This document shows positions 394-10,740 of a DNA stretch of 10,762 nt, in pieces (within the stretch, counting starts at the first letter, position 1; each line of letters opens with the position of its first letter). The notes beneath the pieces are model-generated. The model was not told the origin of the DNA. It worked only from the letters and a program-made list of their open reading frames with translations, and searched no databases. The stretch comes from Cyanothece sp. UBA12306 (GTDB lineage Bacteria; Cyanobacteriota; Cyanobacteriia; Cyanobacteriales; Microcystaceae). Location of the stretch: the NCBI GenBank assembly GCA_003448685.1, contig DLXW01000309.1:1-10762 (forward strand), written 5' to 3'. Made by a program: the position numbers and the translations under genes.

Positions 394-1245
394 TCAAGCT
401 GCCATCAAAGAAGCTATCGGTGGTAAGATACAGCGTCCAACTGCTTGAGCGATTGGTTCTAAATTATGGACTAAATTCACCATTTCTTCTAAGGAAAGAG
501 CTTTCGCAGCATCAGAAACCGATTTTTCTGGTTGAGGATGGCATTCAATAATTAAACCATCGGCTCCCGCTGCGATCGCTGCTTTAGCCAAGGGAGCAAT
601 TAATTCTCTTCTTCCAGCAGCATGGGACGGATCAACAATCACAGGTAAACAGGTAAGCTGTTTAAGAGCCACCACTGCACCTAAATCTAGAACATTGCGG
701 GTATAGTCATCAAAACTACGGATGCCTCGCTCACACAAAACTACCTGAGAATTTCCCTGAGCCAAGATATATTCTGCCGCACAAATAAATTCCTCAAGGG
801 TAGCAGCCAAACCACGCTTGAGGAGGATGGGTTTATTAACTTTTCCTAAGGCTTTGAGTAAATCAAAATTTTGCATATTACGGCTACCCACTTGTAGCAT
901 ATCGGCATGGAGAGCCACAGCCTCTATCTGTTCTATAGTCATCACTTCAGTTACCACGGGTATTGAGTAACGTCGTTTAATATCTGAAAGTATTTTCAGT
1001 CCTTCGAGTCCTAGTCCTTGGAAAGAATAGGGAGAGGTTCTTGGTTTAAAAGCTCCTCCGCGCAATGCTTGAACCGGTGCTAGGCGTAAACGAGATGCAA
1101 CCGCTTCCATTTGTTCTAAACTTTCTACTGCACACGGACCACCAATAATAACGATTTCTTGACTTCCAAAGATAATTCGATCATTTAAAGAAACTGGGGT
1201 AATTGCTTCGGGATGGGATTTTAAAGCGAGTTTAGCGTTGAACAT
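394..1245 (-). CDS. aroF: 3-deoxy-7-phosphoheptulonate (DAHP) synthase, class I-beta, core-only
   Basis: Condenses phosphoenolpyruvate and erythrose 4-phosphate, the first step of the shikimate pathway to Phe, Tyr, Trp and chorismate; a cytosolic TIM barrel. Family marks are GGPCAVES (35-42), RGGAFKPRTSPYSFQG (62-77), TEV (99-101), QVGSRNMQN (118-126), LLKRG (141-145), the VDPSHAAGRR segment (204-213) and ECHPQPEKS (234-242). The likely metal ligands Cys38, His208, Glu234 and Asp245 are present. At 283 aa the protein is the barrel plus about 25 N-terminal residues: the ferredoxin-like domain of longer bacterial I-beta enzymes is absent, as are ACT and chorismate mutase domains, so no allosteric module is visible. 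The start is supported by AAGGAAG eight bases before ATG. KDO-8-phosphate synthase is related, but the KPRTS motif favours DAHP synthase. Expression is probably controlled by the attenuator upstream. Confidence 0.93.
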   Translation of the reverse strand: MFNAKLALKSHPEAITPVSLNDRIIFGSQEIVIIGGPCAVESLEQMEAVASRLRLAPVQALRGGAFKPRTSPYSFQGLGLEGLKILSDIKRRYSIPVVTEVMTIEQIEAVALHADMLQVGSRNMQNFDLLKALGKVNKPILLKRGLAATLEEFICAAEYILAQGNSQVVLCERGIRSFDDYTRNVLDLGAVVALKQLTCLPVIVDPSHAAGRRELIAPLAKAAIAAGADGLIIECHPQPEKSVSDAAKALSLEEMVNLVHNLEPIAQAVGRCILPPIASLMAA

Positions 1246-1286: not shown

Positions 1287-1326
1287 AAAAACCCCGGAAC
1301 CTTATAAGTAAGTGTTCCGGGGTTTT
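1287..1326 (-). terminator. Intrinsic terminator in the aroF leader (attenuator)
   Basis: In minus-strand sense AAAACCCCGGAAC (1326-1314) pairs perfectly over 13 bp with GTTCCGGGGTTTT (1300-1288), with a 13-nt loop. The transcript ends in TTTTT (1291-1287). It lies downstream of the leader ORF and 41 nt before aroF, so it should stop transcription before the gene unless the 5' arm is captured by another pairing. No plus-strand gene ends near it, so it is not an ordinary end-of-gene terminator. Confidence 0.88.
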
Positions 1327-1380
1327 AGATAGCCTGAAAAAGCGACTCAGCTTAAATTAACCGGAACCTCCATGGTTGCC
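1314..1380 (-). promoter_or_regulatory. Alternative leader pairings: pause hairpin and antiterminator
   Basis: Arm 2 (GGTTCCGG, 1368-1361, codons 19-21 of the leader ORF) has two possible partners. Arm 1 (GGCAACC, 1380-1374) pairs with GGTTCC around a 5-nt loop with one bulged C. Alternatively GTTCCGG (1367-1361) pairs perfectly with CCGGAAC (1320-1314), the 5' arm of the terminator, and extends by about three pairs past a bulged A. The 2:3 pairing excludes the 3:4 terminator stem. Arm 2 and the terminator 3' arm share the octamer GGTTCCGG, as expected of competing arms. Confidence 0.75.
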
Positions 1381-1423
1381 AGGTAAAATAAAAGCTATAA
1401 AACCAATTCTGAAACGGGATCAT
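1352..1423 (-). CDS. Aromatic-rich leader peptide (Phe/Tyr/Trp attenuator peptide)
   Basis: A 23-codon ORF, ATG 1423-1421 to TAA 1354-1352. Aromatic residues are Phe 4, 8, 11, 13 and 20, Tyr 9 and 12, and Trp 7, 15 and 18: 10 of 23. Codons 7-13 read W-F-Y-S-F-Y-F, so all three products of the pathway are represented. An in-frame TAG eight codons upstream, with no alternative start between, fixes ATG as the start. The Shine-Dalgarno signal is weak, which is common in cyanobacteria. Ribosomes held at the aromatic codons would leave the segment around codons 19-21 free to form the antiterminator; ribosomes reaching the stop would cover it. The peptide itself probably has no other role. Confidence 0.82.
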   Translation of the reverse strand: MIPFQNWFYSFYFTWQPWRFRLI

Positions 1424-1519: not shown

Positions 1520-1548
1520 ATAATAACACAATTAAAACTGCTTGTCAA
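1520..1548 (-). promoter_or_regulatory. Promoter of the aroF leader
   Basis: In minus-strand sense a perfect TTGACA (1548-1543) is followed after 17 bp by TATTAT (1525-1520); TATAAT overlaps it three bases further on. Transcription should start near 1513-1511, about 90 nt before the leader peptide start codon. Confidence 0.8.
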
Positions 1549-3778: not shown

Positions 3779-4900
3779 ATGAATTTAGCTAGAATCTGGG
3801 TTATTGCTACTAATGGCTTTAGAGAAGTGATCCGCGATCGCATTCTTTACGTGATCGCTTTTTTCGCGATTCTTCTAGTGTTTGCTGTACGCTTACTCCC
3901 AGAAATTTCCGTCGGTGCAGATGCTAAAATTATTCTAGATTTAGGGTTAGCAGCTATGTCCCTCTTGGGAGCTGTTGTTGCCATTTTTGTCGGTACGGGA
4001 TTAATTAATAAAGAAATTGAAAAAAGAACTGTTCTTGTTTTGATTCCTAAACCCATCAGTCGCGCTGAATTAATTATTGGCAAGCATTTAGGATTATCTG
4101 GGGTTTTAGGGTCGATGGTTGTGATTATGACCGTAATCTATTTCGCCCTAATTAGTTGGTCTAAGATTAAATTTTCAGTTGTTAGTTTATTAGTTTCCCA
4201 ACTGTATTTGTTTTTAGAACTAGCACTATTAACTGCAATAGCTATTGTTTTTGGAGTTTTTACCAGTTCTATTTTAGCTACTCTCTTGAGTTTTGGTGTC
4301 TACCTCATGGGCCATGTGAGTAGTGATTTATTAGCATTAGTCAATGATTTTCTGGATTTATCTAAAATTGAAGCACAAAAAGAAGAAATATTTTTAGAAA
4401 CTATTGCTGTAGAAGATATATGTTTGTCAGCAATTTCTATGATTGAGTCCAAGGCCAAAGAACAAGGATTAGACTTGATTGTAGATATTGGAAGTAATGT
4501 GGATTTTTGTACGGTAGATCAGCGTCGTATTAAACAAATTTTACTAAATTTACTGTCTAATGCCATTAAATTTACAGAAAAAGGTTCAGTCACTCTGAAA
4601 GTCAAAAGTAATCTAGAACTTCTCAGTTTTTGTGTTATTGATACAGGAATCGGTATTAAAAAAGATGATCAAGAAAAACTATTTCAAGCTTTTCAACAGA
4701 TTCAAAATCACTTAAGTCGTAAACATAAAGGCACAGGTTTAGGATTAATTTTGTCAAGAAAATTAGCTCAACTTCATGGAGGGGATCTTACTTTAACCTC
4801 AGAAATAGGAAAAGGAAGTTGTTTCACCCTTCATTTACCTATCAAACCAAAAAACAAGAACCAGGAAACAGAAAATACTCAAACAATAAATTATGATTAA
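3779..4900 (+). CDS. Chimeric ORF: ABC-2-type permease N-half fused to histidine-kinase C-half
   Basis: Residues 1 to about 180 look like a cyanobacterial ABC-2-type permease. They begin MNLARIWVIATNGFREVIRD, carry about five membrane segments (roughly 22-40, 55-77, 104-127, 133-157, 160-178), and contain the cytoplasmic segment NKEIEKRTVLVLIPKPISRAE (77-97). From about 183 the sequence is the back half of a histidine kinase: LLALVNDFLDLSKIEA (184-199) is the end of the dimerisation helices. The ATPase domain follows, with the N box (LLNLLSNAIKF, 255-265), G1 box DTGIGI (288-293), LFQAF (301-305) and G2 box GTGLGL (318-323). The phospho-accepting His box is absent, and the permease lacks its usual second half. 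A deletion joining two genes is the simplest reading. The stop overlaps the larE start by 8 nt. Whether a stable protein is made is unknown. Confidence 0.8.
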   Translation: MNLARIWVIATNGFREVIRDRILYVIAFFAILLVFAVRLLPEISVGADAKIILDLGLAAMSLLGAVVAIFVGTGLINKEIEKRTVLVLIPKPISRAELIIGKHLGLSGVLGSMVVIMTVIYFALISWSKIKFSVVSLLVSQLYLFLELALLTAIAIVFGVFTSSILATLLSFGVYLMGHVSSDLLALVNDFLDLSKIEAQKEEIFLETIAVEDICLSAISMIESKAKEQGLDLIVDIGSNVDFCTVDQRRIKQILLNLLSNAIKFTEKGSVTLKVKSNLELLSFCVIDTGIGIKKDDQEKLFQAFQQIQNHLSRKHKGTGLGLILSRKLAQLHGGDLTLTSEIGKGSCFTLHLPIKPKNKNQETENTQTINYD

Positions 4901-5912: not shown

Positions 5913-7124
5913 ATGTTAGATGTCTTGAAGATTAGAATTTATCCAAATCCACAGCAAGAACTAGCTTTAGTTAAAAACTTAGGCTCTGCTAGATTTGTTT
6001 ATAATTACTACCTAAATCAGACAAATAATCAGTATTTAGAAACAGGGAAAGGGATGACTTATTGCCAAATGGCAAAGGACTTAACCCAACTCAAGAAGCA
6101 CTCTGACTATGAATGGTTAGCTGAAGCTACGGCAGCGACTTTACAACAGTCCCTTAAAAATTTAGAAGTCGCTTTTAATAACTTCTTTGAAAAAAGAGCC
6201 AATTTTCCTAAGTTTAAAAGTAAACGCCGAAAACAATCAATTCGTTATCCTGAGAGTTGTTCAATCAGAAATAATAAATTGAAACTCCCGAAAATTGGTT
6301 TTGTTAAAGCCAAAATTTACAGAGATATTAAGATTAAAGGTAAAATTAAATCAGTAACGGTTTCCCAGACAACTACAGGTAAATATTTTGCTTCCCTGTT
6401 ATTTGAGACTGATGATTTAACAGTTAATAAAGAACCTAAAATTTCAGGAATTGACTTAGGTTTATCAAGCCTAGTAACGGTTTTTGATGGAGAGAATTCT
6501 GACAAAGTTGACCCGATTAAACCCATAAGAAAATATGCTAAACGATTGAAAAGGAGGCAACAAAAGTTATCTCGAAGAGTTAAAGGTTCTAAGAACTGTA
6601 AAAAAGCCATTAAAGAAGTGGCAAAAGTTCACGAAAAAATCACTAATACCCGAGCAGATTTTCTTCATAAACTCTCAAGGAAGCTCGTTGATGAAAACCA
6701 AATCATTGTAGCAGAAGACCTTTGTCTAAAAGGATTAGCTCGAACAAAATTAGCCAAGTCAATTCATGATGCTGGTTTTGGTATGTTGCTAAACTTCTTG
6801 AGTTACAAGCTAGAAAGAGAGGGGGGAAAACTGATTCGAGTTGACAGATTTTATCCGAGTACAAAACTTTGTTCATGCTGTAATTTCAAGAATGATTTAT
6901 TAACTCTAAGTATTCGGGATTGGGTTTGTCCAGAATGCCAAACACATCATGATAGAGATGAAAATGCAGCGAAAAATTTAAGGCAAGAAGGATTAAGAAT
7001 ACTGTCAACAAATACCGAAGGGCATTCGGAATTTGAAGCTTGTGGAGAAACTGTAAGACTCGTTAATACTTGTATTAAAAAGCGGGTTTCTGTGAATCAA
7101 GAATCCCCCGTTATATTGCGATAG
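5913..7124 (+). CDS. tnpB: TnpB, RNA-guided nuclease of an IS200/IS605-type element
   Basis: TnpB proteins bind an RNA from the right end of their element and cut matching DNA, which helps the element persist; they are the ancestors of Cas12. The protein starts MLDVLKIRIYPNPQQE, with a helix-turn-helix-like N-terminal region and the RNA-binding core before the RuvC domain. The catalytic triad is visible: Asp181 (GIDLGL), Glu268 (VAEDL) and Asp349 (HDRDENAAKN). A zinc finger is formed by Cys320, Cys323, Cys339 and Cys342. Length 403 aa is normal and no frameshift is seen, so it is probably active. Its stop codon lies inside the right-end hairpin. No strong ribosome site precedes the ATG. Confidence 0.93.
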   Translation: MLDVLKIRIYPNPQQELALVKNLGSARFVYNYYLNQTNNQYLETGKGMTYCQMAKDLTQLKKHSDYEWLAEATAATLQQSLKNLEVAFNNFFEKRANFPKFKSKRRKQSIRYPESCSIRNNKLKLPKIGFVKAKIYRDIKIKGKIKSVTVSQTTTGKYFASLLFETDDLTVNKEPKISGIDLGLSSLVTVFDGENSDKVDPIKPIRKYAKRLKRRQQKLSRRVKGSKNCKKAIKEVAKVHEKITNTRADFLHKLSRKLVDENQIIVAEDLCLKGLARTKLAKSIHDAGFGMLLNFLSYKLEREGGKLIRVDRFYPSTKLCSCCNFKNDLLTLSIRDWVCPECQTHHDRDENAAKNLRQEGLRILSTNTEGHSEFEACGETVRLVNTCIKKRVSVNQESPVILR

Positions 7125-9397: not shown

Positions 9398-9426
9398 TTA
9401 TTGTTATTGTTAATGATCAAGAATTG

Positions 9427-10740
9427 ATGAAAATTATTGCCTATCTTTATAGTGATCCCCTTCTAGAATCATCTCCAGATAGCTCAATTTGGGGGTTGGA
9501 AGTCGATAAAATTTATCAAGATTTAGGTCAACGGCAACAATTACAAATTCTCTTAAAGGAATGTACTGAATCTTCTCCAGATTATTTATTAATTCGTCGT
9601 TTAGATGAATTGGGGGACAATTTTGCGGAAGTAGTCGATTGTTTGACTAAATTAGAAGCTTTGGGAATCAAAATAATTGCTACAGAACAAAACTATAATT
9701 CTTCTCACATAAATTCCCAAAAATCCCTAGAAATGGTCAAAATTTTAGTTGAAAATTTTGAAGAAATTAAGCTTAATAAATATCGTCACCGACTACAGAA
9801 AGGACACGCAAAAAACAGACTTAAATTCTTACCACCTCCAGGAAAAGCCCCCTATGGATATCGTAGAGGCAAAGATCGTTATATAATTGACCGCAGTACG
9901 GCTCCAGTGGTTAAAGACTTTTTTGAACAGTTTTTGTTATTTGGTTCTTTAAGAAGAACAGTTCGTTATTTAGAGAAAAAATATGGCAAAAAAATTTCAG
10001 TTTCTACAGGTCATCGTTGGTTAAATAATCCAGTCTATCGAGGAGATTTAGCTTATAAAAATCATGAGGTAATTCCTGATACCCATACACCGATTATATC
10101 AAGGCAAGAAGCCGCTCAAGTTGACCGTTTATTAAGACGCAATAAAAAGTTACCACCACGGACAGCCAGTGCGCCCCGTTCTTTGGCTGGATTAGTTGTT
10201 TGTGAAAGTTGCCAATCTTCTATGATTGTTAGTCATGTAAAAACTCGAAATAATAAACAAGAATATCTATATCTACGGCCTAAAAATTGTCCTTTACAAC
10301 CTCGATGTAAGTCTAAATCTTATCAAGAAATTTTAGAGCGCACTATTCAAAAAATCTGTCAAGATTTACCAGACACAGTTGCTAATTTAAATCTACCTAA
10401 TCTAGAAGAAGTTAAAATAAATTTACAGGAAAAAATCGCAAAAAATAACCAAATTATTGATCAATTAACTATTTTAAAACAAGAAGGCATTTTAGATGAG
10501 GAAACAGCCCAACTAAGAAACTATAAATTACAGGGAGAAATTGCCGTAATTAGAACTCAACTTGAACAACTTCCTCCTGGAGATTTGAAAGTCATTACTA
10601 AAGCGGTAACTATACCTCAATTTTGGTGGGATTTATCAGAAGCAGAACGGAGGTTTTATTTTCGAGAATTTATTAGTAAAATTTTAATTGTTCCCCTATC
10701 TCCTAAAACTTGGGAACTAAAATTAGTCTTCGTTTTCTAA
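9427..10740 (+). CDS. Serine-recombinase-like protein (XisF-like layout) with a degenerate active site
   Basis: The layout is that of large serine recombinases such as cyanobacterial XisF. Numbering from TTG 9424: a resolvase-like domain (1-125), a recombinase domain (about 138-240, with PPPGKAPYGYRR and WLNNPVYRGDL), a zinc-ribbon-type segment with Cys260, Cys263, Cys289 and Cys295, then a coiled coil (about 325-385) and a C-terminal helix. The catalytic part is abnormal. The usual Y-x-R-V-S motif reads AYLYSDP, and the usual L-D-R-L-G-R motif reads L-D-E-L-G-D, so the conserved arginines are gone. Recombination by the standard mechanism is doubtful; a DNA-binding or structural role is an alternative. 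I prefer ATG 9427 to TTG 9424. It is the last gene of the coaD cluster and no attachment sites are seen. Confidence 0.82.
   Translation: MKIIAYLYSDPLLESSPDSSIWGLEVDKIYQDLGQRQQLQILLKECTESSPDYLLIRRLDELGDNFAEVVDCLTKLEALGIKIIATEQNYNSSHINSQKSLEMVKILVENFEEIKLNKYRHRLQKGHAKNRLKFLPPPGKAPYGYRRGKDRYIIDRSTAPVVKDFFEQFLLFGSLRRTVRYLEKKYGKKISVSTGHRWLNNPVYRGDLAYKNHEVIPDTHTPIISRQEAAQVDRLLRRNKKLPPRTASAPRSLAGLVVCESCQSSMIVSHVKTRNNKQEYLYLRPKNCPLQPRCKSKSYQEILERTIQKICQDLPDTVANLNLPNLEEVKINLQEKIAKNNQIIDQLTILKQEGILDEETAQLRNYKLQGEIAVIRTQLEQLPPGDLKVITKAVTIPQFWWDLSEAERRFYFREFISKILIVPLSPKTWELKLVFVF

What the first reader, a model, noticed from the sequence alone, without database searches (positions are those of the whole stretch)
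1352..1423. Leader peptide with 10 aromatic residues in 23 codons upstream of DAHP synthase
The sequence shows an ORF read in the same direction as aroF and placed between its promoter and a terminator. It carries five Phe, two Tyr and three Trp; codons 7-13 contain six aromatics in seven. Clustering of codons for exactly the three end products of the pathway is the hallmark of attenuator leader peptides (trpL, pheL), which are well known in proteobacteria. I do not know of a described cyanobacterial example on a DAHP synthase gene, and unlike trpL or pheL this peptide samples all three amino acids.
Basis: partly seen in the sequence, partly recalled or inferred. Interest (0 to 1): 0.92.

Follow-up and report, generated by a model that had tools for sequence, protein, structure and literature searches.

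The report
Tandem aromatic-codon attenuators before cyanobacterial aroF
Many cyanobacteria appear to tune the first enzyme of aromatic amino acid synthesis with one or two tiny upstream genes packed with Phe, Tyr and Trp codons, so that a ribosome short of any of the three lets transcription run on into the enzyme gene; this control is familiar in other bacteria but appears undescribed in cyanobacteria.

Summary
On the minus strand 1423-1352 there is a 23-codon ORF (MIPFQNWFYSFYFTWQPWRFRLI) with 5 Phe, 2 Tyr and 3 Trp, between a promoter-like site and a terminator-like hairpin, upstream of a core-type DAHP synthase (394-1245).

Relatives make the case. An ORF with the same core (WFYGFYFWPR...) stands before the same gene in 83 of 83 loci with at least 400 nt upstream. 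In 79 of 83 a second aromatic leader (M....YFYFWF..VHR.) lies about 146 nt further upstream, with its own terminator. The aromatic block is conserved as amino acids. The 3' end of each ORF pairs with the 5' side of its terminator, with strong compensatory changes for leader 1, modest ones for leader 2. Folding with a masked ribosome predicts read-through for stalls in most of the aromatic block and termination at the stop. In 386 cyanobacterial genomes both elements track this gene.

Best reading: tandem ribosome-mediated transcription attenuators sensing all three aromatics. The window's genus keeps only leader 2; there antitermination is favoured kinetically, not at equilibrium. Translation and regulation are inferred. 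A 2016 paper saw no reliable data for attenuation in cyanobacteria.

The parts
1520..1548 (-). promoter-like site: -35 TTGACA (1548-1543), 17-nt spacer, extended -10 TATTAT (1525-1520)
   Evidence: 11 of 12 matches; a comparable site lies within 130 nt before the first leader ATG in 80 of 83 loci against 172 of 1660 shuffles
1352..1423 (-). leader ORF ('leader 2'), ATG at 1423, MIPFQNWFYSFYFTWQPWRFRLI, stop TAA 1354-1352
   Evidence: counterpart ORF in 83 of 83 loci; covariance model R2 match 1279-1426 minus, E 5.1e-16 (the window is in the model's training set)
1379..1405 (-). aromatic control block, codons 7-15 (W F Y S F Y F T W)
   Evidence: conserved by amino acid in relatives; stalling here leaves the antiterminator arm free (P 0.78-0.79)
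1361..1367 (-). antiterminator 5' arm GTTCCGG inside codons 19-21 of the ORF; a copy of part of the terminator's 3' arm
   Evidence: sequence; pairing kept in 94.5% of cells over 64 aligned sequences
1287..1326 (-). terminator hairpin AAAACCCCGGAAC...GTTCCGGGGTTTTT; its CCGGAAC (1320-1314) is also the antiterminator 3' arm
   Evidence: -24.3 kcal/mol; 94.4% of cells paired, 4 of 9 pairs with changes on both sides; not listed by the consensus scanner
394..1245 (-). regulated gene: core-type 3-deoxy-7-phosphoheptulonate (DAHP) synthase, 283 aa
   Evidence: PF00793

Best explanation
A ribosome-mediated transcription attenuator of DAHP synthase. RNA polymerase starts just downstream of the -10 at 1520 minus (inferred) and a ribosome begins the leader ORF. 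If charged tRNA for Phe, Tyr and Trp is plentiful, the ribosome reaches the end of the ORF, covers the GTTCCGG arm, and the terminator stops transcription before aroF. If any of the three is short, the ribosome stalls in the WFYSFYFTW block, GTTCCGG stays free, pairs with CCGGAAC of the terminator as soon as that is transcribed, and polymerase reads on into aroF. In most relatives two such units stand in series, leader 1 (YFYFWF) then leader 2 (WFYGFYFW), so a transcript must pass both; the window's genus keeps only leader 2. Shown here by sequence comparison: ORF conservation, aromatic block, terminator and antiterminator pairings, a promoter-like site before the first leader, tight linkage to aroF. 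Inferred: translation, stalling, termination and the physiological signal.
For: Leader 2 in 83 of 83 loci and leader 1 in 79 of 83 (78; L011 added). In aligned rows, with no pattern asked of them, the leader-1 core YFYFW is aromatic in 41-43 of 43 at each codon and the next codon in 34 of 43; leader-2 core codons other than the central Gly/Ser are aromatic in 58-64 of 64; Tyr alternates TAT/TAC. All three aromatics occur in 77 of 78 leader-1 and 83 of 83 leader-2 peptides. Pairing: leader-1 antiterminator 92.8% of cells paired, 5 of 10 pairs with changes on both sides, slid controls at most 42.1% and 1 pair; leader-1 terminator 96.8%, slid at most 50.0%; leader-2 antiterminator 94.5%, slid at most 62.5%; leader-2 terminator 94.4%, 30 cells with double changes, slid at most 60.4% and 9 cells. 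Ribosome-mask folding: leader 1 P(terminator) 0.08-0.14 with the A-site at stop-16 to stop-9, 0.97 at the stop; mean over all F/Y/W stalls 0.37 against 0.97 at the stop, 78 of 78 loci in that direction; leader 2 0.22-0.43 at stop-17 to stop-7, 0.81 at the stop, 79 of 82. Nascent RNA: P(leader-2 antiterminator) 0.92 or more for stalls at stop-19 to stop-7 and 0.02 or less from stop-4 on, 82 loci; window 0.78-0.79 when stalled at W7-Q16, 0.00 from codon 18 on. Of 37 genomes with the gene among 386, R1 lies within 700 nt upstream in 35, R2 in 36, both in 34. Promoter-like site before the first leader in 80 of 83.
Against: No expression, ribosome or growth data were available. For the window itself equilibrium folding gives P(terminator) 0.96-0.98 at stalls from F4 on (0.75-0.78 at codons 2-3): the terminator (-24.3 kcal/mol) outweighs the antiterminator duplex (-11.4), so the switch works only if the antiterminator forms first and persists; L082, L083 and L026 also stay at 0.88 or more at their aromatic codons from codon 7 on. 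Without a ribosome P(antiterminator) is 0.01 in the window. In 13 of 82 leader-2 loci P(terminator) stays below 0.5 even with the ribosome at the stop. With a 13-nt footprint, stalls at the W and F that end the leader-1 block already favour termination. Covariation for the leader-2 antiterminator is modest: 3 of 8 pairs with double changes, equalled by one slid control, and its covariation score (0.104) is below that of the +1 slid control (0.113); its support is mainly the percentage paired. The named helices were taken from these sequences, which favours them over slid versions. An SD-like motif is found before leader 1 in 0 of 78 and before leader 2 in only 46 of 83. Peptide conservation exceeds what pure codon counting needs. 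A proposed third helix was not convincing.
Confidence: 0.86

Rival explanations
1. Arrest-peptide sensing: the conserved peptide (WFYGFYFWPR) is read in the exit tunnel together with a free aromatic amino acid, as in TnaC (recalled), and the ribosome stalls or releases according to ligand rather than tRNA charging.
For: The peptide is conserved beyond aromatic identity: the central residue is Gly or Ser in 63 of 64 aligned rows, and Trp-Pro is frequent.
Against: Aromatic sites swap F/Y/W; the last codons follow RNA pairing; leaders 1 and 2 are different peptides that share little but aromatic richness. The CCC of Trp-Pro also pairs with the GGG of the ORF end in the consensus fold, an RNA-level reason for its conservation.
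Confidence: 0.06
2. In the window's own genus the element is decaying: leader 1 is gone and leader 2 ends in a terminator so strong that it works as a near-constitutive brake.
For: No leader-1 match beyond chance in the window (best 6.6 bits, E 0.26), L082 or L083; equilibrium P(terminator) 0.96-0.98 at stalls from F4 on in the window; smaller genomes of the genus have broken aroF fragments.
Against: All three members examined (window, L082, L083) keep the aromatic block and the antiterminator arm; two of the three have a promoter-like site by the rule used (not L083). Nascent-RNA folding gives the window P(antiterminator) 0.78-0.79 when stalled at W7-Q16 and 0.00 from codon 18 on.
Confidence: 0.1
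3. The ORFs encode small functional (for example membrane) peptides, unrelated to termination.
For: Hydrophobic, conserved, with start codons.
Against: Strong matches lie at aroF (or its remnant) alone in 386 genomes; C-terminal codons follow RNA complementarity; N-terminal residues vary.
Confidence: 0.02
4. An RNA-only sensor (T-box, riboswitch or protein-bound leader) with an incidental ORF.
For: Conserved RNA helices and terminators.
Against: No Rfam match at gathering score in the window; at E up to 1 in L001, L006, L016, L053 only four matches far below their gathering scores and outside the leader. Such a sensor would not keep aromatic codons with synonymous changes.
Confidence: 0.02

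Closest known systems
Leader-peptide transcription attenuators of proteobacteria (trpL, pheL; recalled) and Actinobacteria (named in PMC4833913; part 1 of 3 of its text and passages seen)
   Same: Short ORF rich in codons for the pathway's end product, between promoter and terminator; an antiterminator arm that a ribosome at the ORF end covers.
   Different: Codons for all three aromatics; two units in series in most relatives; controls the first, shared step; the antiterminator arm lies inside the last codons and, in leader 2, copies the terminator's 3' arm; phylum Cyanobacteria.
uORFC-13-1 motif before aroF of Acholeplasma (PMC8632094, section 26 read, other passages seen)
   Same: Predicted uORF before a DAHP synthase gene, next to a terminator, with Phe codon(s).
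   Different: 24 representatives, Acholeplasma and environmental sequences only; at least one Phe codon rather than a cluster of F, Y and W; described as single; homology not tested here.
Salmonella mgtCBR leader (mgtM and mgtP; PMC3641672, abstract and outline seen)
   Same: Two short ORFs in one leader acting as tandem attenuators.
   Different: There the two ORFs read different signals (ATP and proline), which the abstract calls a singular example; here both are rich in the same three codon types.
Histidine leader peptides before hisZ/hisS of bacilli (PMC2965389, passages seen)
   Same: A leader peptide found by comparative genomics outside Proteobacteria and Actinobacteria, where its authors knew of no other.
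   Different: Firmicutes, histidine, hisZ and hisS-type genes; cyanobacteria are not mentioned in that text (0 occurrences).

Membership tests
ribosome-mediated (leader-peptide) transcription attenuators | short ORF with clustered codons for the product of the controlled pathway | tested here: met
ribosome-mediated (leader-peptide) transcription attenuators | ORF lies between a promoter and an intrinsic terminator in front of the biosynthetic gene | tested here: met
   by sequence only; hairpin and T run seen, although the consensus scanner listed no terminator in the window
ribosome-mediated (leader-peptide) transcription attenuators | mutually exclusive antiterminator and terminator, with the antiterminator arm covered by a ribosome that finishes the ORF | tested here: met
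   for relatives; for the window only in the nascent-RNA model, not at equilibrium
ribosome-mediated (leader-peptide) transcription attenuators | protector (1:2) hairpin that favours termination without translation | tested here: inconclusive
   CCC:GGG in the leader-2 consensus fold and free P(antiterminator) 0.01 in the window but 0.54 on average; leader 1 free P(terminator) 0.20
ribosome-mediated (leader-peptide) transcription attenuators | the ORF is translated and read-through responds to charged tRNA | not testable with these tools
   needs ribosome profiling, RNA 3'-end mapping and starvation assays
T-box leader RNA | matches the T-box covariance model | tested here: not met
   no Rfam match in the window at gathering score; no T-box match in L001, L006, L016, L053 up to E 1
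uORFC-13-1 (Acholeplasma aroF motif) | shared consensus sequence and structure of that motif | not tested
   only its description was read

The most novel reading that the evidence does not exclude
Cyanobacteria carry a phylum-specific form of attenuation in which two leader-peptide attenuators that sense the same three aromatic amino acids stand in series before the first pathway gene, so that read-through is the product of two switches (steeper, less leaky), and single-unit versions (leader 2 only in the window's genus, leader 1 only in G158) are natural tests of it.
Probability: 0.55. Interest if true: 0.82.

Novelty: new variant of a known kind. Interest (0 to 1): 0.77.

Why it matters
[quoted passage not shown] A conserved tandem system would show that ribosome-coupled transcription control operates in that phylum, give natural single- and double-unit variants for asking why attenuators are stacked, and name a genetic handle on carbon flow into aromatic compounds. 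In the window's family the five g12 genomes (3.7-4.0 Mb) lack the core-type gene; if, as I suspect from size but did not test, these are Synechocystis, that may be one reason it was missed.

Tried and rejected
Third helix pairing the leader-2 start region with a post-stop segment: 80.7% of cells paired, best slid control 61.8%, but pairs with double changes no better than shuffles (231 of 500); not claimed. The first terminator parser for leader 2 misplaced the stem in many loci; redone with a register-free measure; the leader-1 result agreed in both. Leader-1 remnant in the window: none beyond chance (best 6.6 bits). Other aromatic genes, asked for an ORF with 6 of 8 aromatics upstream: second DAHP synthase type 0 of 21 loci (maximum 5 of 8); pheA/PDT 0 of 24 scored (25 matches, the one below the family cut-off left out); trpE-type domain 0 of 28 scored out of 41 matches (L204 dropped as too short, L226 overlooked, 11 had no locus). 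Weak R2 matches in G142 (second site), G267, G166 and G132 align mainly over the terminator, with no aromatic cluster by eye. Rfam: nothing relevant. The aromatic-site counts used patterns that partly require the result; one search recounts them on the alignments without a pattern, and the report uses those. In note 4 I called the frame after the broken aroF of L171 integrase-like by eye; Pfam gave no match, so that is withdrawn.

Literature: ten searches of the open-licence PMC library; some listings were capped (12 of 3,337 papers, 12 of 426). None of the listed titles or abstract openings, and none of the passages opened (PMC8632094, PMC4833913, PMC3641672, PMC7693272, PMC2965389, PMC2864571), describes an aromatic leader peptide or attenuator on a cyanobacterial gene. 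Subscription papers are not covered and one structured-RNA survey was not held.

The 80 loci are the best of 282 candidates, so the nearest relatives. The motif patterns were written, so (pattern-free density) is the fair control. L045 could not be parsed for leader-2 folding (82 of 83). Covariation used non-redundant subsets: 43 of 78 leader-1 rows and 64 of 83 leader-2 rows. Training loci of R2 include G000, G036 and G048, of R1 G048, and other training species may also be among the 386 genomes, which were drawn from a larger group.

Full report
What is there. The ORF lies on the minus strand, 1423-1352, and reads MIPFQNWFYSFYFTWQPWRFRLI*, ten aromatics in 23 codons. Its stop is 106 nt before the ATG of a 283-aa DAHP synthase of the core type (NCBIfam PRK08673, TIGR01361; Pfam PF00793). 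A TTGACA-17-TATTAT site with TG before the -10 stands at 1548-1520 minus. Between ORF and gene is a hairpin, AAAACCCCGGAAC...GTTCCGGGGTTTTT, -24.3 kcal/mol; the 246-nt leader folds better than all of 200 shuffles (z -4.83). The consensus terminator scanner did not list the hairpin.

Conservation. The window gene was used to fetch the best 80 of 282 candidate loci and eight further core-type loci from the window's family. After removing duplicates and loci with too little upstream sequence, 83 remained, window included. All 83 carry an ORF with the window ORF's core (typically WFYGFYFWPRxSSG), its stop 79 to 352 nt before the gene. In 79 there is a second ORF, typically MxxxxSYFYFWFRVVHRE: 78 by pattern, stop-to-stop spacing 142-238 nt, median 146, and L011 by covariance model at 131.7 bits. 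Leader 1 is not found in L018 and in the three members of the window's genus examined (window, L082, L083). A pattern-free measure gives the same picture: 82 of 83 upstream regions hold an ORF with at least six aromatics in eight codons, against 0 of 83 on the opposite strand, 5 of 160 downstream and 1 of 160 far upstream.

Selection on the codons. On the alignments, with no pattern required, the leader-1 core Y-F-Y-F-W is aromatic in 41, 42, 41, 41 and 43 of 43 rows, the next codon in 34; in leader 2 the codons of W-F-Y-(G/S)-F-Y-F-W are aromatic in 61, 63, 62, (0), 64, 63, 58 and 63 of 64 rows, the fourth being Gly or Ser in 63. Tyr uses both TAT and TAC, Phe is nearly always TTT, and most departures are to another aromatic. 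Leader 2 averages 8.5 and leader 1 6.4 aromatics per peptide; all three aromatics are present in 83 of 83 and 77 of 78.

RNA pairing. Each ORF ends in a segment complementary to the 5' side of its terminator. Leader 1: GGTTCACC in the ORF with GGTGAACC, whose last bases belong to the terminator CCGCAG...CTGCGG; 92.8% of cells paired, 5 of 10 pairs with compensatory changes, slid controls at most 42.1% and one such pair. Its terminator: 96.8%, 2 of 8 pairs with double changes. Leader 2: GTTCCGGG at the ORF end with CCCGGAAC, the 5' arm of the terminator; 94.5% paired, slid at most 62.5%; 3 of 8 pairs with double changes, equalled by one slid control, and a covariation score just below that of the +1 slide, so here the percentage paired, not covariation, carries the claim. 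Its terminator: 94.4%, 4 of 9 pairs and 30 cells with double changes. The leader-2 ORF thus ends in a copy of its own terminator's 3' arm. Shuffle controls do not keep relatedness, and helices read off these sequences have an advantage over slid ones.

Ribosome position. Folding only the RNA beyond a ribosome edge (13 nt from the A-site codon; 10 and 16 also tried) gives, for leader 1, P(terminator) of 0.08-0.14 with the A-site at stop-16 to stop-9 and 0.93-0.98 from stop-8 on; the boundary falls at the end of the YFYF run and shifts by one codon with the footprint. Averaged over all F/Y/W codons it is 0.37, because stalls at the final W and F already allow termination, against 0.97 at the stop; all 78 loci show the stop above their aromatic mean. 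For leader 2 the means are 0.22-0.43 at stop-17 to stop-7 and 0.81 at the stop (0.35 over all F/Y/W codons), 79 of 82 loci in the expected direction, but 13 of 82 stay below 0.5 at the stop. In nascent RNA ending just past the terminator's 5' arm, the leader-2 antiterminator forms with P 0.92 or more for stalls at stop-19 to stop-7 and 0.02 or less from stop-4 on.

The window's own copy. At equilibrium the window's terminator wins at stalls from F4 on (0.96-0.98; 0.75-0.78 at codons 2-3). In nascent RNA, however, the antiterminator has P 0.78-0.79 for stalls at W7 to Q16, 0.20 at codon 17, 0.00 beyond and 0.01 without a ribosome. So the window's attenuator needs kinetic antitermination: the antiterminator is complete before the terminator's 3' arm is made. 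I treat this as the weakest point for the window, and list decay in this genus as a rival.

Distribution. In 386 cyanobacterial genomes drawn from the phylum, 37 have the core-type gene at E 1e-100 or better, a cut between the 68-100% identical class and the roughly 50% identical second type seen. Model R1 (leader 1) matches 37 genomes, once each; R2 (leader 2) matches 40, two of them twice. Of the 37 gene-bearing genomes, R1 lies within 700 nt upstream in 35, R2 in 36 and both in 34; the exceptions are G000 and G036 (leader 2 only) and G158 (leader 1 only). Outside them R1 matches G414 and G078: in G414 both leaders precede an aroF frame that breaks off, and in G078 an apparent aroF remnant follows. 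R2 matches G414 plus three weak cases (G267, G166, G132) that align mainly over the terminator. The second DAHP synthase type, pheA and the trpE-type loci scored have no such leader (0 of 21, 0 of 24, 0 of 28).

Promoter and initiation. A promoter-like pair of hexamers stands within 130 nt before the first leader in 80 of 83 loci, in 69 of these 40-59 nt from its ATG, against 172 of 1660 shuffles, so both leaders should lie in the 5' part of the aroF transcript. SD-like motifs are found before leader 1 in 0 of 78, leader 2 in 46 of 83 and aroF in 75 of 83. Without a ribosome leader 1 favours read-through (mean P(terminator) 0.20), unlike E. coli trp as I recall it; leader 2 favours termination at equilibrium (0.73).

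What it is and is not. It works like a trpL/pheL-type attenuator and meets the structural defining features that could be tested; translation and response could not be. Tandem attenuators are known from Salmonella mgtCBR, where the two ORFs sense different signals (PMC3641672, abstract). A predicted uORF before aroF is known from Acholeplasma (PMC8632094, section 26). [quoted passage not shown] Ten searches of the open library showed no cyanobacterial case in their listings; that is not proof of absence from the literature.

Noticed in passing
L171 (G414:C1:3955800-3957700, minus strand): Both leaders are present, but the aroF frame matches only the first part of DAHP synthase (Pfam positions 2-70) and is followed by a different frame of 306 residues, open to the end of the fetched stretch, with no Pfam match; aroF may carry an inserted DNA element.
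   Followed up: partly
L172 (G078:C48:72200-74300, minus strand): Leader 1 is followed by what looks like a degraded aroF remnant; no leader-2 match.
   Followed up: partly
G037, G039, G040 (same genus, 2.8-3.1 Mb genomes): Core-type aroF seems to survive only as fragments, most with in-frame stops, and there is no R1 or R2 match, suggesting loss in the smaller genomes of this genus.
   Followed up: partly
G158:C89:6300-7300 (L175): The only one of 37 gene-bearing genomes with leader 1 but no leader 2; a weak R2 match there (21.5 bits) overlaps leader 1 itself.
   Followed up: yes
leader 1 of 78 loci: No SD-like motif 5-16 nt before the start codon in any of 78 loci, so initiation there should use another route; unexplained.
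   Followed up: no
window 3779-4900 +: One frame joins an ABC-2 permease-like N-terminal part to a histidine-kinase ATPase domain (PF12679 and PF02518), an apparent fusion.
   Followed up: no
window 5913-7124 +: TnpB-type RNA-guided endonuclease gene (NCBIfam guided_TnpB).
   Followed up: no
window 9424-10740 +: Serine-recombinase-like gene (Resolvase, Recombinase and zinc-ribbon domains).
   Followed up: no
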